A DNA stretch of 64,000 nt from the NCBI GenBank assembly GCA_916613615.1, contig OU744724.1:28320171-28384170 (forward strand), read 5' to 3'. This stretch comes from Steromphala cineraria (taxonomy: Eukaryota > Mollusca > Gastropoda > Trochida > Trochidae). The translations under genes and the position numbers were made by a program. The notes below the pieces were generated by a model that worked only from the letters and a program-made list of their open reading frames with translations, did not search any database and was not told the origin of the DNA. This document shows, piece by piece, positions 5,553 through 55,519 of the stretch (its first letter is position 1; the number at the start of each line of letters is the position of its first letter).

Positions 5553-5569
5553 AATAAATGTTGAATAAA
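5553..5569 (+). terminator. Polyadenylation signals of the zinc-finger gene
   Basis: Two AATAAA hexamers (5553-5558 and 5564-5569) lie about 135 bp after the stop codon at 5418-5420, the right position for 3' end formation. Confidence 0.6.
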
Positions 5570-30586: not shown

Positions 30587-30596
30587 GGTGCTCGTT
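30587..30596. repeat. Left target-site duplication of the giant foldback element
   Basis: GGTGCTCGTT, identical and in the same orientation as 55510-55519, lies immediately outside the GGTAA terminus. Confidence 0.88.
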
Positions 30597-30869
30597 GGTA
30601 ACGTCTATATTCCATTCACATGGCGACCACCTATTTTCCTCGTTTTTATCGATTGGTACGACCTTGCGTATTATTGCATAGCGACTTCTATAAATAGAAA
30701 TCCCAAAACATGCGTTCAGAAGCTAAAACTATCGCGAGCGCTGACGAAATACGAACGGGAGTGCTGCATTATCATAGTTTCAAGAAGATATACTCAACAT
30801 AAGCAGTTAGAGTATGTCTATAGCTTGCAGCAACCTTCTAACGGAAAGTAACACACAAATATAAAATCT

Positions 30870-33800
30870 TTTTTTTTTCAGATAAACAATGGATTTAAAA
30901 TGTAAACAAGTGGTGTCATTTACATACAGTGGTCAATGTGTGGATGAGATTGAGACGTTGGTTATTCAGGGGTAAAGACGGCGTCTCCTTTAAATCATTA
31001 GGCTTATAGACAACGAACCATTACTCAATATTACCCATTTATACATTTTTATACCTCCAAAAAGAAAACTATAGATTATGTTGAAAATTTAATAAGATAC
31101 AGATGGTACAAAGTGGTCGACGAATGGATGAGATTTCGAAATAGGTTATAAAGGGAAAAGGGAGGTCTTATTCAAATCTTTACAGACAACTAACCGTAAT
31201 CAATATCACCAAATATAACTATCTGGCCTTAAGTCTACATCCTGATGTACCCCTCCATAAAGAAAGATATAGAATTTGTTGAAAATTAGATAAAATACAG
31301 AAGTTAAAAAGTGGTCGACGAATGGATGAGATTTAGACATTGCTCATATAGGGAAAAGGGAGGTCTTATTCAAATGTTTAAAGAAAACTGACCGTTATCA
31401 ATATCACTATATATAAGTATTTGGCCTTTAGTCTACATCCTGATGTTCCCCTCCATAAAGAAAAATATAGAATTTGTTGGAAATGAAATAGAATATTGAA
31501 GTTAAGAAGTGGTCGACGAATGGATGAGATTTAGACATTGCTTATATAGGGGGAAAGGGAGGTCTTATTCAAATCTTTACAGAAAACTGACCGTTATCAA
31601 TAACACTTAATATAAGTATTTGGCCTTTAGTCTACATCCTGATGTACCCCCCCATAAAGAAAAATATAGAATTTGTTGGAAATGAAATAGAATATTGAAG
31701 TTAAGAAGTGGTCGACGAATGGATGAGATTTAGACATTGCTTATATAGGGGGAAAGGGAGGTCTTATTCAAATCTTTACAGACAACTGACCGTTATCAAT
31801 AACACTTAATATAAGTATTTGGCCTTTAGTCTACATCCTGATGTACCCCTCCATAAAGAAAATATAGAATTTGTTGAAAATTAAATAAAATACAGAAGTT
31901 ACAAAGTGGTCGACGAATGGATGAGATTTAGACATAGGTTATATAGGGAAAAGGGAGGTCTTATTGAAATCTTTACAGAAAACTGACCGTTATCAATATC
32001 ACTATATATAAGTATTTGGCCTTTAGTCTACATCCTGATGTACCCCTCGATAAAGAAAAAAATAGAATTTGTTGGAAATGAAATAGAATATTGAAGTTAC
32101 AAAGTGGTCGACGAATGGATGAGATTTAGTCATAGCTTATATAGGGAAAAGGGTGGTCTTATTCAAATCTTCACAAACAACTGACCGTTATCAATATCAC
32201 TTAATATAAGTATTTGGCCTTTAGTCTACATCCTGATGTACACCTCCATAAAGAAAGATATAGAATTTGTTCAAAATTAAATAAAATACAGAAGTTACAA
32301 AGTGGTCGACGAATGGATGAGATTTAGACATAGGTTATATAGGGAAAAGGGAGGTCTTATTGAAATCTTTACAGACAACTGACCGTTATCAATATCACTA
32401 TATATAAGTATTTGGCCTTCAGTCTACATCCTGATGTACACATCCATAAAGAAAAATATAGAATTTGTTGAAAATTAAATAAAATACAGATGTTATAAAG
32501 TGGTCGACGAATGGATGAGATTTAGACATTGCTTATATGGGGGAAAGGGAGGTCTTATTCAAATCTTTACAGACAACTGACCGTTATCAATATCACTTAA
32601 TATAAGTATTTGGCCTTTAGTCTACATCCCGATGTACCCATCCATAAAGAAAAATATAGAATTTGTTCAAAATTAAATAAAATACAGAAGTTAAAAAGTG
32701 GTCGACGAATGGATGAGATTTAGACATAGGTTATATATAGGGAAAAGGAAGGTCTTATTCAAATCTTTACAGACAACTGACCGTTATCAATACCACTTAA
32801 TATAAGTATTTGGCCTGTAGTCTACATCCTGATGAACCCCTCCATAAAAAAAAATATTGAATTTGTTGAAAATTAAATAAAATACAGAAGTTACAATGTG
32901 GTCGACGAATGGATGAGATTTAGACATTGTTCATATAGGGAAAAGGGAGGTCTTATTCAAATCTTTACAGACAACTGACCGTTATCAATATCACAATATA
33001 TAAGTATTTGGCCAGTAGTCCACATCCTGATGAACCCCTCCATAAAGAAAAATATAGAATTTGTTGAAAATTAAATAAAATACAGAAGTTACAATGTGGT
33101 CGACGAATGGATGAGATTTAGACATTGTTCATATAGGGAAAAGGGAGGTCTTATATAAATGTTTAAAGAAAACTGACCGTTATCAATATCACTTAATATA
33201 AGTATTTGGCCTTTAGTCTACATCCTGATGTACCCCTCCATAAAGAAAAATACAGAATTTGTTCAAAATTAAATAAAATACAGAAGTTACAAAGTGGTCG
33301 ACGAATGGATGAGATTTAGACATAGGTTATATAGGGAAAAGGGAGGTCTTATTGAAATCTTTACAGAAAACTGACCGTTATCAATATCACTATATATAAG
33401 TATTTGGCCTTTAGTCTACATCCTGATGTACCCCTCCATAAAGAAAAATATAGAATGTGTAGAAAATTAAATAAAATACAGAAGTTAAAATGTGGTCGAC
33501 GAATGGATGAGATTTAGACATAGGTTATATAGGGAAAAGGGAGGTCTTATTGAAATCTTTACAGAAAACTGACCGTTATCAATATCACTTAATATAAGTA
33601 TTTGTCCTGTAGTCTACATCCTGATGTACCCCTCCATAAAGAAAAATATAGAATTTGTTGAAAATTAAATAAAATACAGAAGTTACAATGTGGTCGACGA
33701 ATGGATGAGATTTAGACATTGTTCATATAGGGAAAAGGGAGGTCTTATTGAAATCTTTACAGAAAACTGACCGTTATCAATATCACTATATAAAAGTATT

Positions 33801-36800
33801 TGGCCTTTAGTCTACATCCTGATGTTCCCCTCCATAAAGTAAAATATAGAATTTGTTGAAACTTAAATAAAATACAGAAGTTAAAAAGTGGTCGACGAAT
33901 GGATGAGATTTAGACATAGGTTATATAGGGAAATGGGAGGTCTTTTTGAAATCTTTACAGAAAACTGACCGTTATCAATATCACTATATATAAGTATTTG
34001 GCCTTTAGTCTACATGCTGATGTACCCCTCGATAAAGAAAAAAATAGAATTTGTTGGAAATGAAATAGAATATTGAAGTTACAAAGTGGTCGACGAATGG
34101 ATGAGATTTAGTCATAGCTTATATAGGGAAAAGGGAGGTCTTATTCAAATGTTTACAGACAACTGACCGTTATCAATATCACTATATGTAAGTATTTGGC
34201 CTTTAGTCTACATCCTGATGTACCCATCCATAAAGAAAAATATAGAATTTGTTGAAAATTAAATAAAATACAGAAGTTATAAAGTGGTCGACGAATGGAT
34301 GAGATTTAGACATTGCTTATATGGGGGAAAGGGAGGTCTTATTCAAAGCTTTACAGACAACTGACCGTTATCAATATCACTTAATATAAGTATTTGGCCT
34401 TTAGTCTACATCCTGATGTACCCATCCATAAAGAAAAATATAGAATTTGTTCAAAATTAAATAAAATACAGAAGTTACAAAGTGGTCGACTAATGGATGA
34501 GATTTAGACATAGGTTATATAGGGAAAAGGGAGGTCTTTTTGAAATCTTTACAGAAAACTGACCGTTATCAATATCACTATATATAAGTATTTGGCCTTT
34601 AGTCTACATGCTGATGTACATCTCGATAAAGAAAAAAATAGAATTTGTTGGAAATGAAATAGAATATTGAAGTTACAAAGTGGTCGACGAATGGATGAGA
34701 TTTAGTCATAGCTTATATAGGGAAAAGGGAGGTCTTATTCAAATCTTCACAAACAACTGAGCGTTATCAATATCACTTAATATAAGTATTTGGCCTTTAG
34801 TCTACATCCTGATGTACACTCCATAAAGAAAGATATAGAATTTGTTGAAAATTAAATAAAATACAGAAGTTACAAAGTGGTCGACGAATGGATGAGAGTT
34901 AGACATAGGTTATATAGGGAAAAGGGAGGTCTTATTCAAATGTTTACAGAAAACTGACCGTTATCAATATCACTATATATAAGTATTTGGCCTTTAGTCT
35001 ACATCCTGATGTTCCCCTCCATAAAGAAAAATATAGAATTTGTTGGAAATGAAATAGAATATTGAAGTTAAGAAGTGGTCGACGAATGGATGAGATTTAG
35101 ACATTGCTTATATAGGGGGAAAGGAAGGTCTTATTCAAATCTTTACAGACAACTGACCGTTATCAATATCACTATATATAAGTATTTTGCCTTTAGTCTA
35201 CATCCTGATGTACCCCTCGATAAAGATAATAATAGAATTTGTTGGAAATGAAATAGAATATTGAAGTTACAAAGTGGTCGACGAATGGATGAGATTTAGT
35301 CATAGCTTATATAGGGAAAAGGGAGGTCTTATTCAAATCTTCACAAACAACTGACCGTTATCAATATCACTTAATATAAGTATTTGGCCTTTAATCTACA
35401 TCCTGATGTACACCGCCCTAAAGAAAGAAATAGAATTTGTTAAAAATTAAATAAAATACAGAAGTTACAAAGTGGTCGACGAATGGATGAGATTTAGACA
35501 TAGGTTATATAGGGAAAAGGGGGGTCTTATTCAAATGTTTACAGAAAACTGACCGTTATCAATATCACTATATATAAGTATTTGGCCTTTAGTCTACATC
35601 CTGATGTTCCCCTTCATAAAGAAAAATATAGAATTTGTTGAAAATTAAACAAAATACAGAAGTTATAAAGTGGTCGACGAATGGATGAGATTTAGACATT
35701 GCTTATAAAGGGGGAAAGGGAGGTCTTATTCAAATCTTTACAGACAACTGACCGTTATCAATATCACTTAATATAAGTATTTGGCCTTTAGTCTACATCC
35801 TTATGTACCCCTCTATAAAGAAAAATATAGAATTTGTTCAAAATTAAATAAAATACAGAAGTTAAAAAGTGGTCGACGAATGGATGAGATTTAGACATAG
35901 GTTATATAGGGAAAAGGGAGGTCTTATTCAAATGTTTTCAGAAAACTGACCGTTATCAATATCACTTAATATAAGTATTTGGCCTTTAGTCTACATCCTG
36001 ATGTATCCCTCCATAAAGAAAAATATAGAATTTGTTGAAAATGGAATAAAATACAGAAGTTACAAAGTGGTCGACGAATGGATGAGATTTAGACATAGGT
36101 TATATAGGGAAAAGGGAGGTCTTATTGAAATCTTTACAGAAAACTGACCGTTAACAATATCACTATACATAAGTATTTGGCCTTTAGTCTACATGCTGAT
36201 GTACCCCTCGATAAAGAAAAAAATAGAATTTGTTGGAAATGAAATAGAATATTGAAGTTACAAAGTGGTCGACGAATGGATGAGATTTAGTCATAGCTTA
36301 TATAGGGAAAAGGGAGGTCTTATTCAAATCTTCACAAACAACTGACCGTTATCAATATCACTTAATATAAGTATTTGGCCTTTAGTCTACATCCTGATGT
36401 ACACCTCCATAAAGAAAGATATAGAATTTGTTCAAAATTAAATAAAATACAGAAGTTACAAAGTGGTCGACGAATGGATGAGATTTAGACATAGGTTATA
36501 TAGGGAAAAGGGAGGTCTTATTGAAATCTTTACAGACAACTGACCGTTATCAATATCACAATATATAAGTATTTGGCCTTCAGTCTACATCCTGATGTAC
36601 ACATCCATAAAGAAAAATATAGAATTTGTTGAAAATTAAATAAAATACAGATGTTATAAAGTGGTCGACGAATGGATGAGATTTAGACATTGCTTATATG
36701 GGGGAAAGGGAGGTCTTATTCAAATCTTTACAGACAACTGACCGTTATCAATATCACTTAATATAAGTATTTGGCCTTTAGTCTACATCCTGATGTACCC

Positions 36801-39800
36801 ATCCATAAAGAAAAATATAGAATTTGTTCAAAATTAAATAAAATACAGAAGTTAAAAAGTGGTCGACGAATGGATGAGATTTAGACATAGGTTATATATA
36901 GGGAAAAGGAAGGTCTTATTCAAATCTTTACAGACAACTGACCGTTATCAATACCACTTAATATAAGTATTTGGCCTGTAGTCTACATCCTGATGAACCC
37001 CTCCATAAAGAAAAATATTGAATTTGTTGAAAATTAAATAAAATACAGAAGTTACAATGTGGTCGACGAATGGATGAGATTTAGACATTGTTCATATAGG
37101 GAAAAGGGAGGTCTTATTCAAATCTTTACAGACAACTGACCGTTATCAATATCACTTAATATAAGTATTTGGCCAGTAGTCCACATCCTGATGAACCCCT
37201 CCATAAAGAAAAATATAGAATTTGTTGAAAATTAAATAAAATACAGAAGTTACAATGTGGTCGACGAATGGATGAGATTTAGACATTGTTCATATAGGGA
37301 AAAGGGAGGTCTTATATAAATGTTTAAAGAAAACTGACCGTTATCAATATCACTTAATATAAGTATTTGGCCTTTAGTCTACATCCTGATGTACCCCTCC
37401 ATAAAGAAAAATACAGAATTTGTTCAAAATTAAATAAAATACAGAAGTTACAAAGTGGTCGACGAATGGATGAGATTTAGACATAGGTTATATAGGGAAA
37501 AGGGAGGTCTTATTGAAATCTTTACAGAAAACTGACCGTTATCAATATCACTATATATAAGTATTTGGCCTTTAGTCTACATCCTGATGTACCCCTCCAT
37601 AAAGAAAAATACAGAATTTGTTCAAAATTAGATAAAATACAGAAGTTACAAAGTGGTCGACGAATGGATGAGATTTAGACATAGGTTATATAGGGAAAAG
37701 GGAGGTCTTATTGAAATCTTTACAGAAAACTGACCGTTAACAATATCACTATACATAAGTATTTGGCCTTTAGTCTACATGCTGATGTACCCCTCGATAA
37801 AGAAAAAAATAGAATTTGTTGGAAATGAAATAGAATATTGAAGTTACAAAGTGGTCGACGAATGGATGAGATTTAGTCATAGGTTATATAGGGAAAAGGG
37901 AGGTCTTATTGAAATCTTTACAGAAAACTGACCGTTATCAATATCACTATATATAAGTATTTGGCCTTTAGTCTACATCCTGATGTACCCCTCCATAAAG
38001 AAAAATACAGAATTTGTTCAAAATTAAATAAAATACAGAAGTTACAATGTGGTCGACGAATGGATGAGATTTAGACATAGGTTATATAGGGAAAAGGGAG
38101 GTCTTATTCAAATCTTCACAAACAACTGACCGTTATCAATATCACTTAATATAAGTATTTGGCATTTAGTCTACATCCTGATGTTCCCCTCCATAAAGAA
38201 AAATATAGAATTTGTTGGAAATGAAATAGAATATTGAAGTTAAGAAGTGGTCGACGAATGGATGAGATTTAGACATTGCTTATATAGGGGGAAAGGAAGG
38301 TCTTATTCAAATCTTTACAGACAACTGACCGTTATCAATATCACTATATATAAGTATTTTGCCTTTAGTCTACATCCTGATGTACCCCTCCATAAAGAAA
38401 AATATAGAATTTGTTCAAAATTAAATAAAATACAGAAGTTAAAAAGTGGTCGACGAATGGATGAGATTTAGATATAGGTTATATAGGGAAAAGGGAGGTC
38501 TTATTCAAATCTTTACAGACAACTGACCGTTATCAATGTCACTCAATACAAGTATTTGGCCTGTAGTCTACATCCTGATGAACCCCTCCATAAAGAAAAA
38601 TATTGAATTTGTTGAAAATTAAATAAAATACAGAAGTTACAATGTGGTCGACGAATGGATGAGATTTAGACATTGTTCATATAGGGAAAAGGGAGGTCTT
38701 ATTCAAATCTTTACAGACAACTGACCGTTATCAATATCACTTAATATAAGTATTTGGCCAGTAGTCCACATCCTGATGAACCCCTCCATAAAGAAAAATA
38801 TAGAATTTGTTGAAAATTAAATAAAATACAGAAGTTACAATGTGGTCGACGAATGGATGAGATTTAGACATTGTTCATATAGGGAAAAGGGAGGTCTTAT
38901 ATAAATGTTTAAAGAAAACTGACCGTTATCAATATCACTTAATATAAGTATTTGGCCTTTAGTCTACATCCTGATGTACCCCTCCATAAAGAAAAATACA
39001 GAATTTGTTCAAAATTAAATAAAATACAGAAGTTACAAAGTGGTCGACGAATGGATGAGATTTAGACATAGGTTATATAGGGAAAAGGGAGGTCTTATTG
39101 AAATCTTTACAGAAAACTGACCGTTATCAATATCACTATATATAAGTATTTGGCCTTTAGTCTACATCCTGATGTACCCCTCCATAAAGAAAAATACAGA
39201 ATTTGTTCAAAATTAGATAAAATACAGAAGTTACAAAGTGGTCGACGAATGGATGAGATTTAGACATAGGTTATATAGGGAAAAGGGAGGTCTTATTGAA
39301 ATCTTTACAGAAAACTGACCGTTAACAATATCACTATACATAAGTATTTGGCCTTTAGTCTACATGCTGATGTACCCCTCGATAAAGAAAAAAATAGAAT
39401 TTGTTGGAAATGAAATAGAATATTGAAGTTACAAAGTGGTCGACGAATGGATGAGATTTAGTCATAGGTTATATAGGGAAAAGGGAGGTCTTATTGAAAT
39501 CTTTACAGAAAACTGACCGTTATCAATATCACTATATATAAGTATTTGGCCTTTAGTCTACATCCTGATGTACCCCTCCATAAAGAAAAATACAGAATTT
39601 GTTCAAAATTAAATAAAATACAGAAGTTACAATGTGGTCGACGAATGGATGAGATTTAGACATAGGTTATATAGGGAAAAGGGAGGTCTTATTCAAATCT
39701 TCACAAACAACTGACCGTTATCAATATCACTTAATATAAGTATTTGGCATTTAGTCTACATCCTGATGTTCCCCTCCATAAAGAAAAATATAGAATTTGT

Positions 39801-41510
39801 TGGAAATGAAATAGAATATTGAAGTTAAGAAGTGGTCGACGAATGGATGAGATTTAGACATTGCTTATATAGGGGGAAAGGAAGGTCTTATTCAAATCTT
39901 TACAGACAACTGACCGTTATCAATATCACTATATATAAGTATTTTGCCTTTAGTCTACATCCTGATGTACCCCTCCATAAAGAAAAATATAGAATTTGTT
40001 CAAAATTAAATAAAATACAGAAGTTAAAAAGTGGTCGACGAATGGATGAGATTTAGATATAGGTTATATAGGGAAAAGGGAGGTCTTATTCAAATCTTTA
40101 AAGACAACTGACCGTTATCAATATCACTTAATATAAGTATTTGTCCTGTAGTCTACATCCTGATGTACCCATCCATAAAGAAAAATATAGAATTTGTTGA
40201 AAATTAAATAAAATACAGAAGTTACATTGTGGTCGACGAATGGATGAGATTTAGACATTGCTTATATAGGGGGAAAGGGAGGTCTTATTCAAATATTTAC
40301 AGAAAACTGACCGTTATCAATATCACTATATATAAGTATTTGGCCTTTAGTCTACATCCTGATGTTCCCCTCCATAAAGAAAAATATAGACTTTGTTGGA
40401 AATGAAATAGAATATTGAAGTTAAGAAGTGGTCGACGAATGGATGAGATTTAGACATTGCTTGTATAGGGGGAAAGGGAGGTCTTATTCAAATCTTTACA
40501 GACAACTGACCGTTATCAATATCACTATATATAAGTATTTGGCCTTTAGTCTACATCCTGATGTACCCCTCGATAAAGAGAATAATAGAATTTGTTGGAA
40601 ATGAAATAGAATATTGAAGTTACAAAGTGGTCGACGAATGGATGAGATTTAGTCATAGCTTATATAGGGAAAAGGGAGGTCTTATTCAAATCTTCACAAA
40701 CAACTGACCGTTATCAATATCACTTAATATAAGTATTTGGCCTTTAATCTACATCCTGATGTACACCGCCCTAAAGAAAGAAATAGAATTTGTTAAAAAT
40801 TAAATAAAATACAGAAGTTACAAAGTGGTCGACGAATGGATGAGATTTAGACATAGGTTATATAGGGAAAAGGGGGGTCTTATTCAAATGTTTACAGAAA
40901 ACTGACCGTTATCAATATCACTATACATAAGTATTTGGCCTTTAGTCTACATCCTGATGTACCCCTCGATAAAGAAAAAAATAGAATTTGTTGGAAATGA
41001 AATAGAATATTGAAGTTACAAAGTGGTCGACGAATGGATGAGATTTAGACATAGCTTATATAGGGGGAAAGGGAGGTCTTATTCAAATCTTTACAGAAAA
41101 CTGACCGTTATCAATATCACTATATATAAGTATTTGGCCTGTAGTCTACATCCTGATGTACCCCTCCATAAAGGAAAATATAGAATTTGTAGAAAATTAA
41201 ATAAAATACAGAAGTTACAAAGTGGTCGACGAATGGATGAGATTTAGACATTTAGTCTTTAGCTTACATCCTGAAGTACCTTTTCATAAAGAAAAATATA
41301 GAATATGTTGAAAATTAAATAAGATACAGAAATTACAAAAGTGGTCGAGGAATGGATGAGATTCAGACATTTAGTCTTCAGCTTTCATCCTGAAGTACCT
41401 TTTCATAAAGAAAAATATAGAATATGTTTAAAATTAAATAAGATACAGAAATTACAAAAGTGGTCGACGAATGGATGAGATTTAGACATTGGTTATATAT
41501 GAAAAAGGGA
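30870..41510 (+). repeat. Left arm: ~198-bp tandem array, about 50 units
   Basis: The landmark GTGGTCGACGAATGGATGAG recurs about every 198 bp (for example near 31113, 31311, 31508 and 31708). Units also share 'gaccgttatcaatatcac' and 'agtctacatcctgatgta'. Outermost units (30870-31100) are strongly diverged, and the innermost (41240-41480) are shortened to about 120 bp. Two adjacent near-identical blocks of eight units (about 1,585 bp) span roughly 36920-40090, a recent higher-order duplication. Open frames of about 74 codons inside units reflect the 3n unit length. Confidence 0.93.
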
Positions 41511-43870
41511 CGTCTAGACAAAGGAGACATTCCTTCTTGTCCGTCGGCTTGATGGAAGGGGAAATTGATGGCAGTATGAACGTCCTCCCGCGTTTGTTGG
41601 CGCTTTGGTTCTCGCAGATATGAAATCTGTTGCAAGACTGTATCAAACCCGTGATCCTTCTTGTGAAGGACGGCAATAATGGCTGCGAGGTTCATGTATG
41701 GAAGAGGCCTTAACCCCTCGCAAAATGCCACGTACAACTTACATTTTGCCCGGGGTTGCCGGAAGGTCACCCTGCCAGAACACTGCACTCATTCTGTCAC
41801 CATGAGGGGTGGTGAATGAACTCTTTTGGCATCCTGATGTGGTGGCCGCAAATCTCCTCCCGAACGTGATCGTTCAAGGCTATCTGAAGAGGTCGGAGAT
41901 GGAGTCTAGAGCTGACGTCAAGAGCCCTAGGAGGCGTTGCCACTGCCGGAGCATGAGAGACTCGCGAAACGCCTGCGCTAGCAATTTCTTGTAGCGTCCC
42001 ATCCGTTTTTCCGTGACAAGGGTTGGTCCTGAGCAGTGTCCAGCAAGACGCCTAGGAAGACGAGTGATGTAGTTGGTACAAGATCCGACTTGTCTGAGTT
42101 GACGAGCCAACCCAGGCGTCTGAACAGATTGATTACAAAGTCTCCTTGTATCGAAAGAACAGATGGGAAGTGATGATTGCTGAACACGTCGCCCAGATAC
42201 ATTGCAAATTGCATGTCGTGCTTGTGCAAGAACTGAACGACGGCCTGGTCCGAGTGAACAGCCATGGTGCTGTTGAGATTCCGAACGGTAGGACGCTCCA
42301 TTGGAAGTGACGTCCCGCCAGAACGAAAGGGAGATACTTGCAAACCACGGGGTAGCCCCGTAAGACGGCCTCCTACTGGCCTGTCCCTGCCCATCACAAA
42401 TTTGCTTTGCTTTGAGATTGATTGGGACCCTTACCTGGACGCCCCCCTTCATGAAAGGAAAAGCCGTCGGTCCTACGACTTGCCGGCGATTCAGGCGAGC
42501 TCCGTATAGGTCTTTAGGCATTGCTGTGCCTATGGAGGAGACCCTGCCACCTCCAGGTGTTAAGCGGTTGGTTAGCTCTTGTTGGGTCTCGTGCCTATGT
42601 CGCAGCGCTTCTGCGACCTGCCCATCAAAGAGCGTCGCTGACATTCCTGGGGCATTTCTGAAACGAGAGCACATCTTTGCAGGGAGATTGGTGTGCGACA
42701 GAAACCAATCTTGTTTCAGATTGGTGATCTCTGCTGACATTTTGGAGGCGCTCAACGTTATCTGGGCCAGGTTCCCTGCCACAGAACCCAAACGCCGATA
42801 CAATGTCTACGCACCAATCCCATTCCCGCCTCCTTGGCGAAGTCGCTCATGACTTGGCAGGCATGGGCGACTGAGTTTGCCATCCCCAACATGCTTCAGG
42901 CTTCCTTGACCAGGTGGGACAAGTGGCCGTCAGACACCAAGTGGGCGATGATGTCCTCATCACTCAGAGAGAAAGATGGGTGGTGAAGCGACTGGGAGTC
43001 CCGACCTCTGGCGATCAGTGATCACTAGAGGCGGGAGAAGACAGTCCAGAGCTGCCGAGGAGACATGAGTCTCATGATCCTTGCCTGCTGCCAGGAAGAG
43101 ACACACTGTGCTGACTCCCTATTTCCTCTTTCCGCACCTTCTTGGTCTGAGAGCATTCCTCACCTGTCTCCTGAAATTTGACCTGACACCAGTCTACAAT
43201 GGCGCCCATGTGCTCGACCTGGACATGCGCCTCCTCATCCCGTGAGCCGCCAGAGGAGGAAGACAGCAGAGTGAAGACACTACTTGCTTCTGTCCTCCAC
43301 CTCGGAGCCTGGTGAGGAAGGCTCAAACACTTCAGTAGAAGATGGATGGGGAGGTGATCCCTCCTGTCAGATCCTGTGGAAACAGAGATTGACCCAGTCT
43401 CGACCTGCTGTGAAGGGCGAACGCTGATCAGAGACTGTACCATGTCCAGAAACAAAAGCCAGGATGTTGTCCTTGAACGCATCCTGGTTGAAAACCATAG
43501 TTGACGGCGCCTTGGCGTGCTTCTCTCTTTTGGACTTTTTGGTCCTCCCGTGGCGACTTGCCTTCTGTTGGGGATCAGCAGGCAGGCGAGTCTGAAATTC
43601 CCTAGGGACAAACCCTAGTGGGGGAGCGCCAGCGGATCCTGTGGAGTTGCATCTTGGCGACGCAACCGCCCAGGAACCAGGGAGGAGATTTCCTCAAACT
43701 CTGTGGCGTCCTCAGAGATAATGGGGGGGCACCACGGAGGTCGTCATCAAGGAGTTAGCACTCAGCTTCTTTGCCCTAGAGCGCTGGTGGAAGAGCCAGA
43801 CTCAAGGTGAGCCAAGTCGCACGGGATCAAATCCATCCCAAATCTTTAAAGATGCTGTATCATACTTGCA
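41510..43870 (-). pseudogene. Decayed DIRS/Ngaro-like retrotransposon in the loop
   Basis: GC-rich sequence with several minus-strand frames. A Gag-like stretch (about 42803-42400) includes LTPGGGRVSSIGTAMPKDLY. Reverse transcriptase remnants follow: FVLAGRHFQWSVLPFGIS then TAPWLFTR (about 42345-42240), and after a frameshift QFAMYLGDVFSNHH and NSDKSDLVPTTSLVFLGVLL (about 42230-42030). FG-S-TAP and the KSDLVP..FLG motif suggest the tyrosine-recombinase retrotransposon RT clade. The catalytic YxDD reads YLGD, frames are broken, and Gag and RT abut without the normal intervening sequence. It is inactive and internally deleted. A recombinase domain was not recognised. Confidence 0.5.
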
Positions 43871-45300
43871 AGCGGTTCAGGATGAAACTTAGCTATTGAG
43901 AAATGAAATACATCACTTTGTAGAAAAATCTTTCGTCGAAATTTTGATACCATATTTAGATTGTTTAATCAAAAATAACATACTTATTTCGACACTTCAA
44001 GCACAACAACGAATACCTAATTTGGAGAAAAAGAATATAAAATCTAGTAGAGCGCGACAAAGACGGTTTTCAAGCGTACAATTAGAAACAGGAAGTTGTG
44101 AAATGGTCACACTTGATTCGCCCTAATGTTGACTACCGTTTCGGTATTTTTTGGTAAATTATTTCCTATTCGATTTCCTCAAGGTTGGTCGCTAAATTTT
44201 TCTAAAAATACAACGTATACATTAAAAATACTTTTAAAATATTGCAAGTATGATTTAGCATCTTTAAGAGGAGAGCACCTGGAGCGCCTCGACCACTAGC
44301 ATGATATGCAAGTCCAATGAAACAAGGGGAGCACGTCCAAGACGTCTCCCACAAGTTCCAGTCTAAACAGGAGAGGAGAGAGCGCCTGGAAGGCCTCGTC
44401 CTAACCCGAAAGCAAGTCCAATGAAACAAGGGGAGTACGTCCAAGACGACTCAACCACTAGTTCCAGTCCAAACAGGAAAGAAGAGAGCGCCTGGAACGC
44501 CTCGACCTAACCTGTAAGAGCCTGAAGAGACATGCACAACCCAAGATTAGTGAAGCGGGGAGAGCCTCTTGAGCGACTTGCCCGCTAACCGATCGCCACC
44601 TGAAGGGCAGGCACAAATCCAAGGTGGACATGAAGAGTGCGAGCGCCTGGTGCGCCTCACCTTCCGTCCCGAGAGCCTAAGCGTCAGACGCCTACCAATC
44701 GACAGGGACGCTCCTCTGAGTTAAGAGAGAGAGACACGAGCCCGAGGGGCGCCCAAGCGCACAGGCACCCGTCCAAGCAAGCACCTACTTTGATAGTAAG
44801 TGCCTGAAGCATTCAACAGCACGCAAAGTATGTGGCGACCAAGGAGAGAAACCGGGCCACCGCCCGTCACTTGCCCTGTACGTTCAGCCCGACCGAAGTT
44901 GACACAACACGCAGCAAATCTGCCCTAAGTTGACACAGCCGCTGTGTCAACAGAACACCTTCCGAATACACAGTATTCAACCCAAGGATTGAATACTCAA
45001 TAGGGAAAGAAGATAAAGAGAGAACAGTCAAGAATTCCTGAATATGTTAAATAGCTGAACACAATCAGGGAACAGAAACACGTCTGAAAACCAATGACTC
45101 TGTAATGTGAATGAAGCTGATTGGTTGACAGGTTACGCAACCTAGTGGGCTAGTGACGGGCGGGTAACTCTAATTGCTCTGAGTAATGATGTATCATTTC
45201 ATCTGTGGGAATGAGTCAATTATATGTTATATGGATAACAAGGCTAAGGTCACTTGTTCGAGGTTAGTATCTAAATAATATGTAAAGATAATGTGATGTA
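43871..45300. repeat. Loop segment with ~115-bp tandem repeats and palindromes
   Basis: Around 44250-44560 a GC-rich unit recurs about every 115 bp (gcgcctggaacgcctcgacc, gcaagtccaatgaaacaagg, gtccaagacg). A 23-bp palindrome lies at 44929-44951 (GTTGACACAGC, one base, GCTGTGTCAAC). The 12-mer CCGCCCGTCACT (44860-44871) recurs inverted at 45152-45163. These may be untranslated or terminal parts of the retrotransposon. No gene was recognised. Confidence 0.55.
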
Positions 45301-48300
45301 TATAAAGATATACCGAATTGTTAGTTGTCTATAAAGGTTTAAAGTAGACCAATCTTTTCTATCAATATTAACACTGTCTTAATCTCATCCACTTGTTGGC
45401 CACTGTGTAACTTGTGTACCTTTCATTTTCATTTTTCGGTATATTCTACATTTTCCTTTTTGTTGGGGTAGCTCAGCATGTAGGCTAAAGACCAAATACT
45501 TATAGTTAGTGCTATCGAAAATGGCCCATGTTTATAAAGATTTAAAGTACACCCCCTTGTTCCCTATATAGCAATGTCAAAATCTCATCCACTCGCCGAC
45601 CACCTTGTAGCTTCTGTTTCTTGTTTAATTTTTCATCATATTCTATATTTTTCTTTATGGAGAGGTACATCAGGATGTAGACGAAAGATCAAATACATAT
45701 ATTAAGTGATATTGATAACGGTCAGTTGCCTGTAAAGATTTAAAGGGGACCTCCCTGTTTCCCTATATAGCAATTTCTAAATCTCATCCATTCGTCGACC
45801 ACTTTGTAACCTCTGTATCTTATTTAATTTTCAACATATTCTATATTTTCCTTTATGGAGTTGTGCTTGAGGATGTAGGCTAAAGACCAGATACTTATAT
45901 TTGGTGACATCGAGAATGGTCAGTTGTCTGTAAACATTTCAAGGAGACCCCCTCTTTTCCCCTATTTAAGCAATGTCTAAATCTCATCCACTCGTTGACC
46001 ACTTTGTAACTATTGTATATTGCTTAATTTTCGTCATATTCTATATTTTCATTTATGGAGGAGTACTTCAGGATGTAGGATAAAGACCAAATACTTAAAT
46101 TGAGTGACATCGAGAATGGTTAGTTGTCTGTAAAGATTTAATGGGGACCCCCTGTTTCTCTATATAAGCAATGTCTAAATCTCATCCATTCGTCGACCAC
46201 TTTGTAACTGCTGTATCTTATTTAATATTTAACATATTCTATATTTTTCTTCATGGAAAGGTACTTTAGGATGTAGGCTAAAGATCAAATACTTATATTA
46301 AGTGATACTGATAACTGTCATTTGCTTGCAAAGATTTAAAGGGGACCCCTGTTTCTCTATATAAGCAACGTCTAAATCTCATCCATTCGTTGACCACTTA
46401 GTATCTTCTGTATTTTATTTAATGTTCAACAAATTCTACATTTTTCTTTATGGAGGGGAACATCAGGATGTAGACTAAAGGCCAAATACTTATATTGAGT
46501 GACATTGATAACGGTCAGTTGTCTGTAAAGATTTGAATAAGACCTCCCTTTCCCCCTATATAAGCAATGTCTAAATCTCATCCATTCGTCGACCACTTTA
46601 TAACTTCTGTATTTTATTTAATTTTTAACAAATTTTATATTTTTCTTTATATATGGGAACATCAGGATGTAGACTAAAGGCCAAATACTTATATATAGCG
46701 ATATTGATAACAGTCAGTTTTCTATAAAGATTTGAATAAGACCTCCCTTTTCCCTATATAAGCTATGTCTAAATCTCATCCATTCGTCGACCACTTTGTA
46801 ACTTCTGTATTTTATTAAATTTTCAACAAATTCTACATTTTTCTTTATGGACGGGTACATCAGGATGTAGACTAAAGGCCAAATACTTATATTGAGTGAC
46901 ATTGATAACGGTCAGTTGTCTGTAAAGATTTGAATAAGACCTCCCTTTTCCCCTATATAAGCAATGTCTAAATCTCATCCATTCGTCGACCACTTTGTAA
47001 CTTCTGTACTTTATTTTATTTTCAACAAATTCTATATTTTTCTTCATGGAGGGGTACATAAGGATGTAGACGTAAGGCCAAAGACTTATATTGAGTGATA
47101 TTGATAATGGTCAGATGCCTGTAAAGATTTAAAAGGGACCCTCTTTTCCGATATATTAGTAATGTCTAAATCTCATCCATTCGTCAACCACTTAGTAACT
47201 TCTGTATTTTATTTAATTTTCAACAAATTCTATATTTTTCTTCATGGAGGGGTACATCAGGATGTAGACTAAAGGCCAAATACTTATATATAGTGATATT
47301 GATAACGGTCAGTTTTCTGTAAAGATTTGAATAAGACCTCCCTTTTCCCTATATAAGCTATGTCTAAATCTCATCCATTCGTCGACCACTTTGTAACTTC
47401 TGTATTTTATTTAATTTTCAATACATTCTATATTTTTCTTCATGGAGGGGTACATCAGGATGTAGACAAAAGGCCAAATACTTATATTTAGTAATATTGA
47501 TAACGGTCAGTTGTCTGGAAAGATTTAATGGGGACCCCCTGTTTCTCTATATAAGAAATGTCTAAATCTCATCCATTCGTCGACCACTTTGTAACTGCTG
47601 TATCTTATTTAATATTCAACATATTCTATATTTTTCTTCATGGAGGGGTACTTTAGGATGTAGGCTAAAGATCAAATACTTATATTAAGTGATACTGATA
47701 ACGGTCATTTGCTTGCAAAGATTTAAAGGGGACCCCTGTTTCTCTATATAAGCAATGTCTAAATCTCATCCATTCGTCGACCACTTTGTAACTTCTGTAT
47801 TTTATTTAATTTTCAATACATTCTATATTTTTCTTCATGGAGGGGTACATCAGGATGTAGACTAAAGGCCAAATACTTATATTTAGTAATATTGATAACG
47901 GTCAGTTGCCTGTAAAGATTTGAATGAGACCTCCCTTTTCCCCTATATAAGCAATGTCTAAATCTCATCCATTCGTCGACCACTTTGTAACTTCTGTATT
48001 TTATTTTAGTTCCAACACATTCTATATTTTTCTTTATGGAGGGGTACTTCAGGATGTAGGCTAAAGATCAAATACTTATATATAGTGATATTGATAACGG
48101 TCAGTTGCCTGCAAAGATTTAAAGGGGACCCCCTGTTTCTCTATATAAGCAATGTCTAAATCTCATCCATTCGTCGACCACTTTGTAACTTCTGTATCTT
48201 ATTCAATTTTCGACATATTCTATATTTTTCTTTATGTGGGGGTAACTTTGGATATAAGCTGAAGTCCAGATACTTACATTAAGTGATACTGATAACGGTC

Positions 48301-51300
48301 AGTTGCCTGCAAAGATTTAAAGGGGACCCCTGTTTCTCTATATAAGCAATGTCTAAATCTCATCCATTCGTCGACCACTTTGTAACTTCTGTATATAAGT
48401 TAATTTTCGACATGTTCTATATTTTTCTTTATGGAGGGGTACTTCAGGATGTAGGCTACAGACCAAATACTTATATTGAGTGATATTGATAACGGTCAGT
48501 TGTCTGGAAAGATTTAATGGGGACCCCCTGTTTCTCTATATAAGCAATGTCTAAATCTCATCCATTCGTCGACCACTTTGTAACTGCTGTATCTTATTTA
48601 ATATTCAACATATTCTATATTTTTCTTCATGGAGGGGTACTTTAGGATGTAGGCTAAAGATCAAATACTTATATTAAGTGATACTGATAACGGTTAGTTG
48701 CCTGCAAAGATTTAAAGGGGACCCCCTGTTTCTCTATATAAGCAATGTCTAAATCTCATCCATTCGTCGACCACTTTGTAACTTCTGTATTTTATTTAAT
48801 TTTCAACAAATTCTATATTTTTCTGCATGGAGGGGTACATAAGGATGTAGACTAAAGGCCAAATACTTATATTGAGTGATATTGATAATGGTCAGATGCC
48901 TGTAAAGATTTAAAAGGGACCCTCTTTTCCGCTATAATAGTAATGTCTAAATCTCATCCATTCGTCAACCACTTAGTAACTTCTGTATTTTATTTAATTT
49001 TCAACAAATTCTATATTTTTCTTTATGGAGGGGAACGTCAGGATGTAGACTCAAGGCCAAATACTAAGTCTTATATTAAGTGATATTGATAACGGTCAGT
49101 TTTCTGTAAAGATTTGAATAAGACCTCCCTTTTCCCTATATAAGCTATGTCTAAATCTCATCCATTCGTCGACCACTTTGTAACTTCTGTATTTTATTTA
49201 ATTTTCAATACATTCTATATTTTTCTTCATGGAGGGGTACATCAGGATGTAGACTAAAGGCCAAATACTTATATTTAGTAATATTGATAACGGTCAGTTG
49301 CCTGTAAAGATTTGAATGAGACCTCCCTTTTCCCCTATATAAGCAATGTCTAAATCTCATCCATTCGTCGACCACTTTGTAACTTCTGTATTTTATTTTA
49401 TTTCCAACACATTCTATATTTTTCTTTATGGAGGGGTACATCAGGATGTAGGCTAAAGATCAAATACTTATATATAGTGATATTGATAACGGTCAGTTGC
49501 CTGCAAAGATTTAAAGGGGACCCCCTGTTTCTCTATATAAGCAATGTCTAAATCTCATCCATTCGTCGACCACTTTGTAACTGCTGTATCTTATTTAATA
49601 TTCAACATATTCTATATTTTTCTTCATGGAGGGGTCCTTTAGGATGTAGGCTAAAGATCAAATACTTATATTAAGTGATACTGATAACGGTCATTTGCTT
49701 GCAAAGATTTAAAGGGGACCCCTGTTTCTCCATATAAGCAATGTCTAAATCTCATCCATTCGTCGACCACTTTGTAACTTCTGTATTTTATTTTATTTTC
49801 AATACATTCTATATTTTTCTTCATGGAGGGGTACATCAGGATGTAGACTAAAGGCCAAATACTTATATTTAGTAATATTGATAACGGTCAGTTGCCTGTA
49901 AAGATTTGAATGAGACCTCCCTTTTCCCCTATATAAGCAATGTCTAAATCTCATCCATTCGTCGACCACTTTGTAACTTCTGTATTTTATTTTATTTCCA
50001 ACACATTCTATATTTTTCTTTATGGAGGGGTACTTCAGGATGTAGGCTAAAGATCAAATACTTATATATAGTGATATTGATAACGGTCAGTTGCCTGCAA
50101 AGATTTAAAGGGGACCCCCTGTTTCTCTATATAAGCAATGTCTAAATCTCATCCATTCGTCGACCACTTTGTAACTGCTGTATCTTATTTAATATTCAAC
50201 ATATTCTATATTTTTCTTCATGGAGGGGTCCTTTAGGATGTAGGCTAAAGATCAAATACTTATATTAAGTGATACTGATAACGGTCATTTGCTTGCAAAG
50301 ATTTAAAGGGGACCCCTGTTTCTCCATATAAGCAATGTCTAAATCTCATCCATTCGTCGACCACTTTGTAACTTCTGTATTTTATTTAATTTTCAACAAA
50401 TTCTACATTTTTCTTCATGGAGGGGTACATCAGGATGTAGACTAAAGGCCAAATACTTGTATTGAGTGACATTGATAACGGTCAGTTGTCTGTAAAGATT
50501 TGAATAAGACCTCCCTTTTCCCCTATATAAACAATGTCTAAATCTCATCCATTCGTCGACCACTTTGTAACTTCTGTATTTCATTTGATTTTCAATACAT
50601 TCTATATTTTTCTTCATGGAGGGGTACATCAGGATGTAGACTCAAGGCCAAATACTTATATTTAGTAATATTGATAACGGTCAGTTGCCTGTAAAGATTT
50701 GAAGGGGACCTCCCTTCCCCCCTATATAAGCAATGTCTAAATCTCATCCATTCGTCGACCACTTTGTAACTTCTGTATTTTATTTAATTTTCAACAAATT
50801 CTATATTTTTCTTCATGGAGGGGTACATCAGGATGTAGACTAAAGGCCAAATACTTATATTGAGTGACATTGATAACGGTCAGTTGTCTGTAAAGATTTG
50901 AATAAGACCTCCCTTTTCCCCTATATAAACAATGTCTAAATCTCATCCATTCGTCGACCACTTTGTAACTTCTGTATTTTATTTAATTTTCAACAAATTC
51001 TATATTTTTCTTTATGGATGGGAACATCAGGATGTAGACTAAAGGCCAAATACTTATATTAAGTGATACTGATAACGGTCAGTTGCCTGCAAAAATTTAA
51101 AGGGGACCCCCTGTTTCTCTATATAAGCAATGTCTAAATCTCATCCATTCGTCGACCACTTTGTAACTTCTGTATATTAGTTAATTTTCGACATGTTCTA
51201 TATTTTTCTTTATGGAGGGGTACTTCAGGATGTAGGCTAAAGACCAAATACTTATATTAAGTGATACTGATAACGGTCAGTTGCCTGCAAAGATTTAAAG

Positions 51301-54300
51301 GGGACCCCCTGTTTCTCTATATAAGCAATGTCTAAATCTCATCCATTCGTCGACCACTTTGTAACTGCTGTATCTTATTTAATATTCAACATATTCTATA
51401 TTTTTCTTCATGGAGGGGTACTTTAGGATGTAGGCTAAAGATCAAATACTTATATTAAGTGATACTGATAACGGTTAGTTGCCTGCAAAGATTTAAAGGG
51501 GACCCCCTGTTTCTCTATATAAGCAATGTCTAAATCTCATCCATTCGTCGACCACTTTGTAACTTCTGTATTTTATTTAATTTTCAACAAATTCTATATT
51601 TTTCTGCATGGAGGGGTACATAAGGATGTAGACTAAAGGCCAAATACTTATATTGAGTGATATTGATAATGGTCAGATGCCTGTAAAGATTTAAAAGGGA
51701 CCCTCTTTTCCGCTATAATAGTAATGTCTAAATCTCATCCATTCGTCAACCACTTAGTAACTTCTGTATTTTATTTAATTTTCAACAAATTCTATATTTT
51801 TCTTTATGGAGGGGAACGTCAGGATGTAGACTCAAGGCCAAATACTAAGTCTTATATTAAGTGATATTGATAACGGTCAGTTTTCTGTAAAGATTTGAAT
51901 AAGACCTCCCTTTTCCCTATATAAGCTATGTCTAAATCTCATCCATTCGTCGACCACTTTGTAACTTCTGTATTTTATTTAATTTTCAATACATTCTATA
52001 TTTTTCTTCATGGAGGGGTACATCAGGATGTAGACTAAAGGCCAAATACTTATATTTAGTAATATTGATAACGGTCAGTTGCCTGTAAAGATTTGAATGA
52101 GACCTCCCTTTTCCCCTATATAAGCAATGTCTAAATCTCATCCATTCGTCGACCACTTTGTAACTTCTGTATTTTATTTTATTTCCAACACATTCTATAT
52201 TTTTCTTTATGGAGGGGTACTTCAGGATGTAGGCTTAAGATCAAATACTTATATATAGTGATATTGATAACGGTCAATTGCCTGCAAAGATTTAAAGGGG
52301 ACCCCCTGTTTCTCTATATAAGCAATGTCTAAATCTCATCCATTCGTCGACCACTTTGTAACTTCTGTATCTTATTCAATTTTCGACATATTCTATATTT
52401 TTCTTTATGTGGGGGTAACTTTGGATATAAGCTGAAGTCCAGATACTTATATTAAGTGATACTGATAACGGTCAGTTGCCTGCAAAGATTTAAAGGGGAC
52501 CCCTGTTTCTCTATATAAGCAATGTCTAAATCTGATCCATTCGTCGACCACTTTGTAACTGCTGTATCTTATTTAATATTCAACATATTCTATATTTTTC
52601 TTCATGGAGGGGTACTTTAGGATGTAGGCTAAAGATCAAATACTTATATTAAGTGATACTGATAACGGTCAGTTGCCTGCAAAGATTTAAAGGGGACCCC
52701 CTGTTTCTCTATATAAGCAATGTCTAAATCTCATCCATTCGTCGACCACTTTGTAACTTCTGTATTTTATTTAATTTTCAACAAATTCTATATTTTTATT
52801 TATGGAGGGGTACTTCAGGATGTAGACTAAAGATCAAATACTTATATTTTGTGATTTTAATAACGGTCAGTTGCTTGTAATGATTTGAATAAGACCTCCC
52901 TTTTCCCTATATAACCTATGTCTAAATCTCATCCATTCGTCGACCACTTTGTAAATTCTGTATTTTATTTGATTTTCAACAAATTCTATATTTTTCTTTA
53001 TGGAGGCCTTCATAAGGATGTAGACTAAAGCCAAATACTTACATATAGTGATATTGATAACGGTCAGTTTTCTGTAAAGATTTGAATAAGACCTCCCTTT
53101 TCCCTATATAAGCAATGTCTAAATCTCATCCATTCGTCGACCACTTTGTAACTTCTGTATTTCATTTGATTTTCAATACATTCTATATTTTTCTTCATGG
53201 AGGGGTACATCAGAATGTAGACTCAAGGCCAAATACTTATATTTAGTAATATTGATAACGGTCAGTTGCCTGTAAAGATTTGAAGGGGACCTCCCTTCCC
53301 CCCTATATAAGCAATGTCTAAATCTCATCCATTCGTCGACCACTTTGTAACTTCTGTATTTTATTTTATTTCCAACACATTCTATATTTTTCTTTATGGA
53401 GGGGTACTTCAGGATGTAGGCTAAAGACCAAATACTTATATAAAGTGATATTGATAACGGTCAGTTGTCTGTAAAGATTTAAAGGGGTCCTCCCTGTTTC
53501 TCTATATAAGCAATGTCTAAATCTCATCCATTCGTCGACCACTTTGTAACTTCTGTATCTTATTCAATTTTCGACATATTCTATATTTTTCTTTATGTGG
53601 GGGTAACTTTGGATATAAGCTGAAGTCCAGATACTTATATTAAGTGATACTGATAACGGTCAGTTGCCTGCAAAGATTTAAAGGGGACCCCTGTTTCTCT
53701 ATATAAGCAATGTCTAAATCTGATCCATTCGTCGACCACTTTGTAACTGCTGTATCTTATTTAATATTCAACATATTCTATATTTTTCTTCATGGAGGGG
53801 TACTTTAGGATGTAGGCTAAAGATCAAATACTTATATTAAGTGATACTGATAACGGTCAGTTGCCTGCAAAGATTTAAAGGGGACCCCCTGTTTCTCTAT
53901 ATAAGCAATGTCTAAATCTCATCCATTCGTCGACCACTTTGTAACTTCTGTATTTTATTTAATTTTCAACAAATTCTATATTTTTATTTATGGAGGGGTA
54001 CTTCAGGATGTAGACTAAAGATCAAATACTTATATTTTGTGATTTTAATAACGGTCAGTTGCTTGTAATGATTTGAATAAGACCTCCCTTTTCCCTATAT
54101 AACCTATGTCTAAATCTCATCCATTCGTCGACCACTTTGTAAATTCTGTATTTTATTTGATTTTCAACAAATTCTATATTTTTCTTTATGGAGGCCTTCA
54201 TAAGGATGTAGACTAAAGCCAAATACTTACATATAGTGATATTGATAACGGTCAGTTTTCTGTAAAGATTTGAATAAGACCTCCCTTTTCCCTATATAAG

Positions 54301-55290
54301 CAATGTCTAAATCTCATCCATTCGTCGACCACTTTGTAACTTCTGTATTTCATTTGATTTTCAATACATTCTATATTTTTCTTCATGGAGGGGTACATCA
54401 GAATGTAGACTCAAGGCCAAATACTTATATTTAGTAATATTGATAACGGTCAGTTGCCTGTAAAGATTTGAAGGGGACCTCCCTTCCCCCCTATATAAGC
54501 AATGTCTAAATCTCATCCATTCGTCGACCACTTTGTAACTTCTGTATTTTATTTTATTTCCAACACATTCTATATTTTTCTTTATGGAGGGGTACTTCAG
54601 GATGTAGGCTAAAGACCAAATACTTATATAAAGTGATATTGATAACGGTCAGTTGTCTGTAAAGATTTAAAGGGGTCCTCCCTGTTTCTCTATAAAAGCA
54701 ATGTCTAAATCTCATCCATTCGTCGACCACTTTGTAACTTCTGTATCTTATATAATTTTCCACATATTCTATATTTTTCTTCATGGAGGGGTAGTTCAGG
54801 GTGTAGGCTAAAGATCAAATACCTATATTGTGTGACATCTAGAATGGTTAGTTGTCTGTAAAGATTTAAAGGAGACCCCCTGTTTCTCTATATAAGCAAT
54901 GTCTAAATCTCATCCATTCGTCGACCACTTTGTAACTTCTGTATCTTATTTAATTTTCGACATATTCTATATTTTTCTTTATGGAGGGATACTTCAGGAT
55001 GTAGGCTAAAGACCAAATACTTATATTGAGTGATATTGAAAACGGTAAGTTGTTTGCAAAGATTCAAAAGAGATCCCTCTTTTTCCCTATATAAGCAATC
55101 TCTAAATCTCATCCATTCGTCGACCACTTTGTAACTTCTGTATATTAGTTAATTTTCAACATATTTATTTTAACATCGATATATTCTATATTTTTCTTTT
55201 TGGTGGGGTACCTCAGAGTGTAGGCTAACTTCCAAATACGCTGAGTGCTATTGAGAATGGTTTTTTGTCTATTAAGAGTTAAATTACTCC
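45300..55290 (-). repeat. Right arm: inverted ~198-bp tandem array, about 50 units
   Basis: The reverse complement of the left-arm landmark (CTCATCCATTCGTCGACCAC) recurs about every 198 bp. Two subfamilies are interspersed: one with 'gatttgaataagacctccc' like the left arm, and one with 'gatttaaaggggacccc' that is almost absent from the left arm. Recent block duplications include about 1,195 bp (six units, 52412 and 53607) and about 596 bp (three units, near 49501 and 50097). Confidence 0.93.
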
Positions 55291-55509
55291 CCGTATCTTA
55301 TTGGCGTTTCGTGTACGATATCATGTGTTCAGAAAGATTGAGCTCGCGAGCGCTTGAAATCCCGGTATGTTGAATAACATACCAGCGGTCGAACGCCAGC
55401 TGTACTGAACGCAGGGCAGGAAACGATACAGGCGCGTGTACAGGGAGTACCAGTCGATAAAAACGAAGAAAAAGGGTGGTCGCCATGTGAATGGAATATA
55501 GACTTTACC

Positions 55510-55519
55510 GGTGCTCGTT
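55510..55519. repeat. Right target-site duplication of the giant foldback element
   Basis: GGTGCTCGTT, a perfect direct copy of 30587-30596, immediately outside the terminal ...TTTACC. Confidence 0.88.

What the first reader, a model, noticed from the sequence alone, without database searches (positions are those of the whole stretch)
30587..55519. Complete 24.9-kb foldback transposon with ~10-kb tandem-repeat arms and an intact 10-bp target duplication
The sequence shows matching inverted termini, GGTGCTCGTT directly repeated exactly outside them, inverted arrays of about 50 units per arm, and a distinct loop. Known foldback elements (FB, TU, Galileo) have this layout but are usually a few kb. 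An element this large, still bounded by a perfect duplication, implies insertion (or later growth of the arms in place) and looks undescribed. Transcription would yield a very long hairpin RNA and so a potential small-RNA source.
Basis: partly seen in the sequence, partly recalled or inferred. Interest (0 to 1): 0.92.

Follow-up and report, generated by a model that had tools for sequence, protein, structure and literature searches.

The report
Family of giant foldback DNA transposons
This 24.9-kb stretch is one of 27 unusually large jumping elements in this genome, each flanked by a short duplicated target site; those read in full consist of two facing arrays of a 198-base repeat whose best-conserved part resembles the element's own ends.

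Summary
The window contains a 24,913-bp element with 68-bp inverted termini, a perfect 10-bp target duplication, and two inverted arrays of about 50 copies of a 198-bp unit around a 3.9-kb loop. It is not alone: end searches find 27 such elements, 13.5-49.6 kb, median 21.2 kb. All 54 exact copies of the 18-bp terminus are their paired ends. Target duplications are exact in 26 of 27 (18 of 10 bp, 8 of 9 bp) and one base off in the last. Six sister copies have loops 99.6-99.9% identical while arm unit counts differ two- to fourfold, so insertion is recent and arms resize fast. One element has right-type units in its left arm; another has its loop inverted. The unit's most conserved 28 nt is also its stretch most like the terminus, so arms may be arrays of transposase-binding sites. 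None of 144 MULE domains scored lies in the 27; no transposase partner was identified. Best reading: a recently active, non-autonomous, probably Mutator-type foldback family of exceptional size; a new variant of a known kind.

The parts
30587..30596 (+). left target-site duplication GGTGCTCGTT
   Evidence: exact direct repeat of 55510-55519; only two copies in window
30597..30664 (+). left terminal inverted repeat (GGTAACGTCTATATTCCATTCACATGGCGACCACC...), 68 bp
   Evidence: 90% identical to inverted right end; 25-mer core found at element ends and one chance place
30665..31053 (+). left subterminal region
   Evidence: its outer part, to 30787, is 94-100% identical in the left ends of the 27 elements
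31054..41251 (+). left arm: 198-bp tandem units, 51.4 copies; units carry the TIR-like 30-mer in reversed orientation relative to the left end
   Evidence: TRF; motif orientation count
41147..41490 (+). inner edge of left arm: shortened 119-bp units, 2.9 copies
   Evidence: TRF; 2.9-3.9 copies at the same place in the 5 sister copies
41491..45374 (.). loop (about 3.9 kb); its last 1.5 kb found in 23 of 27 elements; broken frames, no transposase-like frame seen
41880..42806 (-). broken open frames in loop that look by eye like a decayed DIRS-type reverse transcriptase fragment (recalled likeness; no Pfam match)
43846..44267 (.). dispersed genomic repeat inside the loop
   Evidence: parts of query 47-468 also match 17 places outside the 27 elements among the 40 of 3653 candidates scored
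45375..55165 (-). right arm: 198-bp tandem units in inverted orientation, 49.3 copies
   Evidence: TRF
55166..55441 (-). right subterminal region
55442..55509 (-). right terminal inverted repeat (GGTAAAGTCTATATTCC... on the - strand)
55510..55519 (+). right target-site duplication GGTGCTCGTT

Best explanation
The stretch is one copy of a recently active family of non-autonomous foldback DNA transposons, 27 copies with both ends in this genome. Shown: defined termini, 9-10-bp target duplications, near-identical sister copies at unrelated sites, arms that differ by block duplication and deletion, and traces of exchange between left-type and right-type arms. Inferred: a Mutator-like (MULE) transposase encoded elsewhere binds the ends and moves the element by cut and paste. 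Inferred: the arms are arrays of secondary transposase-binding sites related to the terminus, which help so long an element to move, and whose copy number drifts by unequal exchange and by copying between inverted arms. The loop is passenger DNA; two quite different loops ride between closely related ends.
For: Of 27 elements, 26 have exact target duplications (18 of 10 bp, 8 of 9 bp) and 1 has one mismatch in 9. 54 of 54 exact 18-mer termini are the paired ends of these 27, each element having one GGTAAC and one GGTAAA end. Loops of 6 lineage-A copies are 99.6-99.9% identical over 3.9 kb while left arms hold 22-85 and right arms 26-61 units, sharing long near-identical blocks in altered order and number. 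C36b has 18 consecutive right-type units in its left arm; C43b's loop is inverted, 1 of 23 with this loop. A second loop is shared by 4 elements (5 full-length probe matches, four at 99.5-100% and one at 97.9%). The unit's conservation peak over 660 and 622 units cut with two anchors elsewhere is GTGGTCGACGAATGGATGAGATTTAGAC; the 30-mer holding it ranks 1st of 396-400 windows in likeness to all four terminus versions tried. 144 MULE domains exist elsewhere in the genome, many in open frames.
Against: No partner transposase was identified. None of the 144 MULE matches lies inside or within 20 kb of the 27, but only 150 of 276 candidates were scored and 19 elements were not read through. In six MULE loci of three families the terminus has only weak matches, 4 mismatches in 16, so the superfamily rests on duplication length and analogy. 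The terminus-unit likeness is modest (score 26-32; 0-4 of 2000 shuffles as good) and was first seen by eye. With the full 72-nt left terminus the best whole-unit alignment fell on a neighbouring stretch of the unit, not on the motif. The likeness could also be plain ancestry. Units are not independent samples. No empty allele was seen.
Confidence: 0.82

Rival explanations
1. Same mobile foldback family, but moved by a transposase of another superfamily (P/Galileo-like, Merlin, hAT or unknown).
For: Foldback structure arises in unrelated superfamilies; Galileo is a P element (passages of PMC3573991; Discussion of PMC3169594). No partner transposase was identified here.
Against: 18 of 27 duplications are 10 bp and 9 are 9 bp. 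Galileo makes 7 bp; P and hAT make about 8 and Merlin 8-9 (recalled); 9-11 bp occurs in MULE groups (table rows seen).
Confidence: 0.2
2. The arms are passive satellite: tandem arrays that grew inside the element by unequal exchange, with no role in transposition; the TIR-like motif is only a trace of where the unit came from, or partly chance.
For: Arm unit counts vary two- to fourfold among near-identical copies, so length is not tightly held. The best alignment of the full left terminus to the unit missed the motif.
Against: The TIR-like 28 nt is the conservation peak of the unit in both arms, 98.6-99.2% against 91.5-95.2% overall, which plain drift does not predict.
Confidence: 0.37
3. Assembly artefact or inverted segmental duplication rather than an insertion.
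For: Long inverted arrays are hard to assemble; raw reads could not be inspected.
Against: 27 copies on 13 contigs of 56-99 Mb, of different length and with different, precise duplications; one arm holds a nested LTR retrotransposon with AATAT on both sides.
Confidence: 0.01
4. The arms act mainly as a source of long double-stranded RNA feeding small-RNA silencing.
For: Left and right units of the window copy differ by 12.8% on average, so a read-through transcript could pair over about 10 kb with mismatches (inference).
Against: No expression or small-RNA data were available; that such silencing would sit badly with recent multiplication is my inference only.
Confidence: 0.08

Closest known systems
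Tm1 Mutator/Foldback family of root-knot nematodes (PMC3169594; abstract and part 1 of 2 of the Discussion read)
   Same: Composite inverted termini with variable numbers of an internal repeat, 9-bp duplications, non-autonomous members with passenger DNA, unlike outermost motifs at the two ends
   Different: Tm1 internal repeat is about 14 bp, here 198 bp in long arrays; Tm1 has a copy encoding a Phantom-type transposase, here none was found; its authors see Tm1 as inactive, this family was recently active
Tetris of Drosophila virilis (PMC4079207; listing and passages seen)
   Same: Non-autonomous foldback with internal tandem repeats (one named TIR-220), 8-10-bp duplications, transposase unknown
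   Different: Only three structurally complete copies there; here 27 copies with both ends, and about 20-85 units per arm in those read
Galileo of Drosophila (PMC3573991, PMC3688188; passages seen)
   Same: Long internally repetitive termini, tandem-repeat expansion and contraction differing between the two ends, transposase-binding sites shown in internal repeats
   Different: Termini up to about 1.26 kb and 7-bp duplications (P superfamily); here arms of about 4-16 kb in the 8 elements read and 9-10 bp
Rehavkus (PMC6446971; passages seen)
   Same: 9-bp duplication, minisatellite next to a terminus
   Different: Minisatellite before the 3' end, 26-400-bp termini, encodes its transposase with a PHD finger
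Pack-TIR / Pack-MULE elements (PMC8277862; passages seen)
   Same: Ends of one family carrying different internal DNA
   Different: Captured pieces there have a median of 224 bp; here 3.9 and about 9 kb, and capture from a host source is not shown

Membership tests
Foldback elements (structural class) | long inverted repeats made largely of tandem subrepeats around a middle domain | tested here: met
   8 of 8 elements read in full; the other 19 were read only at the ends, four of them also by probes
Foldback elements (structural class) | target-site duplication of about 9 bp | tested here: met
   26 of 27 exact 9-10 bp, 1 of 27 with one mismatch
Mutator (MULE) superfamily | 9-11-bp target duplication | tested here: met
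Mutator (MULE) superfamily | MULE-type DDE transposase with matching ends | tested here: inconclusive
   144 MULE matches in the genome, 0 in the 27 elements (150 of 276 candidates scored); six loci of three families show only weak matches to the terminus
Galileo / P superfamily | 7-8-bp duplication | tested here: not met
   9-10 bp in 27 of 27, one with a mismatch
Galileo / P superfamily | P-type transposase with THAP domain | not tested
   no search made
Rehavkus | minisatellite before the 3' end only | tested here: not met
   arrays in both arms of 8 of 8 elements read
Rehavkus | own transposase with PHD finger | not tested
   no PHD or Rehavkus search made; no transposase-length frame in the two loops scanned
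Pack-TIR | captured sequence whose source exists elsewhere in the genome | tested here: inconclusive
   a dispersed repeat in the loop has outside copies; the source of the rest and of the second loop could not be searched (server busy)

The most novel reading that the evidence does not exclude
The arms are a transposon-made satellite kept by transposition itself: each 198-bp unit carries a decayed copy of the terminus, held constant because it binds transposase, so tens of internal pseudo-ends per arm (about 100 in the window copy) recruit enzyme and let elements of 13 kb and more move. Pairing of the inverted arms then swaps units between arms and flips the loop. This would make the open question of what foldback repeats are for directly testable.
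Probability: 0.36. Interest if true: 0.78.

Novelty: new variant of a known kind. Interest (0 to 1): 0.64.

Why it matters
The longest foldback-like termini whose length I saw stated are Galileo's, about 1.26 kb (PMC3573991), and a 2026 survey lists complete arthropod MULEs of 1.4-10.0 kb (PMC13359780, listing only). Here arms reach about 16 kb, copies are recent, and each end found is paired and bounded by a target duplication. Arrays can be compared copy by copy at about 0.1% divergence, a natural experiment on how transposon arms and dispersed satellites grow. Binding sites in internal repeats have been shown for Galileo; PMC3688188 calls the point untested for Foldback and Phantom. The conservation peak in the unit gives a concrete site to test. 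Repeat pipelines that strip tandem repeats, as PMC10294476 describes, could miss such elements.

Tried and rejected
Rejected: the C2:41200714 hit of the 25-mer looks like chance (no GGTAA start, 24 bp of likeness only). One- and two-mismatch hits of the 18-mer (312 beyond the 54 exact) are near the reversed-pattern control of 282. Of 17 near-matches fetched (all 14 with one mismatch, 3 of those listed with two), only L124 at C2:50010693 matched an end over more than 25 bp (74% over 65 bp); L127 matched over 22 bp. The interior behind L124 could not be fetched. Six MULE loci of three families gave no convincing terminus; the ends of the third family were not determined. Pfam found nothing in four loop frames. 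Joined flanks of the 27 sites (for 20 of them only about 100 bp a side) show no likeness to one another at E 1e-5. My first unit set was cut with an anchor inside the TIR-like motif, which biases conservation; I repeated it with two anchors elsewhere. The diverged 2.3-kb relative C3e (L048) has, read by eye, a 10-bp duplication with 2 mismatches; the script did not find its right end, and it is left out of the 27. Not answered in spite of repeats, because the genome search was busy: origin of the second loop, search for the TTTATCGACTGGTACG box, relatives of L124. A genome search for an empty site was planned and never sent.
Full report
Observation. The window element runs from 30597 to 55509 (24,913 bp). 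Its outer 68 bp are inverted repeats (61 of 68 identical). GGTGCTCGTT stands directly outside both ends and nowhere else in the window. The arms are 198-bp arrays, 51.4 and 49.3 copies; counting by a conserved anchor gives 55 and 50. The inner edge of the left arm has 119-bp short units. The loop is 41491-45374.

A family. The whole genome is held (1.27 Gb in 281 contigs; window at C5). The left 201 bp and the right 201 bp each match 27 places as an end of that kind, the window's own included, plus one diverged 2.3-kb relative (40 of 61 and 40 of 60 candidates scored). The 27 left and 27 right ends pair up. A 25-mer of the terminus with up to 3 mismatches gave 55 hits and 0 in the reversed control: 54 are the two ends of the 27 elements, the last looks like chance. 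An 18-mer from base 1 gave exactly 54 exact matches, the same ends. So at that stringency no end is unpaired; fragments lacking the ends were not looked for. Each of the 27 has one GGTAAC and one GGTAAA end (read). Lengths run from 13,524 to 49,586 bp, nested insertions included, median 21,221, 621 kb in all. They lie on 13 contigs of 56-99 Mb.

Target duplications. I had both ends of all 27 (window). 18 have an exact 10-bp and 8 an exact 9-bp duplication; C2b has 9 bp with one mismatch. The duplications differ from one another, and the flanks held show no likeness to each other.

Recency and lineages. End sequences sort the copies into groups. Lineage A is the window copy, C35a, C2a, C43a, C36a and C36b. 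Lineage C is C37a, C35b, C7 and C3b, which show the same differences from the consensus at both ends as far as printed (30 of 50 at the right end). C32 has a lineage-C left end and a right end of another group, a likely chimera. In C37d, C6 and C3d base 6 is swapped between the ends. Loops of lineage A are 99.85-99.92% identical in pairs without C36a and 99.61-99.64% with it. With a mutation rate of about 3 per billion sites per year (recalled) that is roughly 0.1-0.6 million years.

Arms. In lineage A left arms hold 22-85 units and right arms 26-61, not in step. Long blocks at 98-100% identity recur in altered order and number between copies, as expected of unequal exchange or block duplication. 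Left and right units form distinct sets. In five of six lineage-A copies the nearest unit in the same arm of a sister copy differs by 0.1-0.7%, the nearest in the other arm of the same element by 5.3-9.5%. The sixth, C36b, shows that left-type and right-type arms can exchange sequence: 18 consecutive units of its left arm are right-type. They match its own right arm over 1736 bp with 3 mismatches, but sister right arms nearly as well (C5w 1869 bp with 5, C36a 1099 bp with 1), so the donor, own or sister, cannot be told. C43a has a 2-unit tract of this kind. C43b alone of 23 has its loop inverted, as recombination between inverted arms would produce.

Loops. The last 1.5 kb of the window's loop occurs in 23 of 27 elements; the 4 without it are lineage C. 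Those share another loop, 9.0 kb in C37a, with no frame over 110 codons. Of 20 probes in the other three, 10 were arm units, 5 full-length loop matches (four at 99.5-100%, one at 97.9%), 2 partial matches at 84-91% and 3 matched nothing held, so those copies carry further sequence. C35c has the common loop and up to 33 kb of foreign sequence in its left arm (13 of 20 probes without array or loop A). C35a carries in its left arm a gypsy-type LTR retrotransposon with identical 183-bp end repeats and AATAT on both sides. The common loop has broken frames that resemble, from memory, a decayed DIRS-type reverse transcriptase; Pfam gave no match.

What the unit is. The 198-bp unit contains a stretch like the terminus, in reversed orientation relative to the nearer end: 52 exact copies of the 13-mer in the window's left arm all on one strand, 43 in the right arm all on the other, none elsewhere in the window. 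Whole-unit alignments to four terminus versions were equalled by 0-5 of 500 shuffles on that strand and by 158-499 on the other. Against my reading, with the full left terminus the best of these alignments lay on a neighbouring stretch of the unit, not on the motif; with the right terminus and the two C3e ends it lay on the motif. Conservation was measured on units cut with two anchors outside the motif (660 and 622 units): the 28-nt motif ranks 3rd of 141 and 3rd of 140 windows, the two above being the same stretch shifted by 1-2 bases; in right-arm units with one anchor it ranks 4th. The 30-mer holding it ranks first of 396-400 in likeness to the outer 32-41 nt of four terminus versions, with 0-4 of 2000 shuffles as good. 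The resemblance was noticed before conservation was measured, and units are related by descent, so these are not blind or independent tests.

Transposase. 144 MULE matches were found (150 of 276 candidates scored), many in frames of 300-470 codons; 0 of 144 lie in or within 20 kb of the 27 elements. In six loci of three MULE families, 6 kb each, the terminus has only weak matches. No transposase-length frame was seen in the two loops scanned, the window's (longest 308 codons, no Pfam match) and C37a's; the other six loops read are 94-99.9% like the window's. One diverged relative of the left end, L124, shares the first 15 bp and a 16-bp inner box at equal spacing; whether it belongs to an autonomous element is unknown.

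Mechanism. Shown: insertion with 9-10-bp duplication, recent multiplication, arms that differ by blocks, exchange between left-type and right-type arms. Inferred: MULE transposase in trans, and arms as arrays of secondary binding sites. For Galileo, binding sites in internal repeats have been shown, and the authors suggest that multiple sites offset the cost of length (PMC3688188, passages). That the arms are passive satellite is about as likely.

Known or new. Structure and duplication length put it among foldback elements, most of which seem to belong to Mutator (PMC4079207, passage). Searches that could have shown a family of this size or in molluscs (open-licence PMC only, listings seen, up to 21 rows each) showed none in titles or abstract starts; subscription papers and Repbase were not searched. 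That the host may be a mollusc is a guess from recalled repeats; no call names the host.

Noticed in passing
window 13801-15253: 147-bp tandem repeat of another family; it recurs beside element C39 and what looks by eye like the same repeat is inserted in the right arm of C36a, so it seems a separate dispersed repeat.
   Followed up: partly
L009 about 907-5738 (C35:11960545-11965376): Ty3/gypsy-type LTR retrotransposon nested in a left arm; 183-bp end repeats identical, AATAT on both sides, one 1369-codon open frame.
   Followed up: partly
G000:C35:40335400-40368400: Up to 33 kb of non-array sequence nested in the left arm of the 49.6-kb element C35c; nature unknown.
   Followed up: partly
L124 (G000:C2:50010693): Diverged relative of the left terminus sharing the first 15 bp and TTTATCGACTGGTACG at equal spacing; may mark an autonomous or sister family.
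   Followed up: partly
L048 (G000:C3:83024138-83026397): 2.3-kb diverged relative with only a few units and a 10-bp duplication with 2 mismatches (by eye); possibly close to a short ancestral form.
   Followed up: partly
window 59326-62583: 1085-codon open stretch on + strand, acidic, that looks (recalled, not tested) like a SUCO/SLP1-type host protein, 3.8 kb beyond the element.
   Followed up: no
all 27 elements: Every element keeps one C and one A at base 6 of its ends, even where the two are swapped; why the ends stay unlike is unexplained.
   Followed up: no
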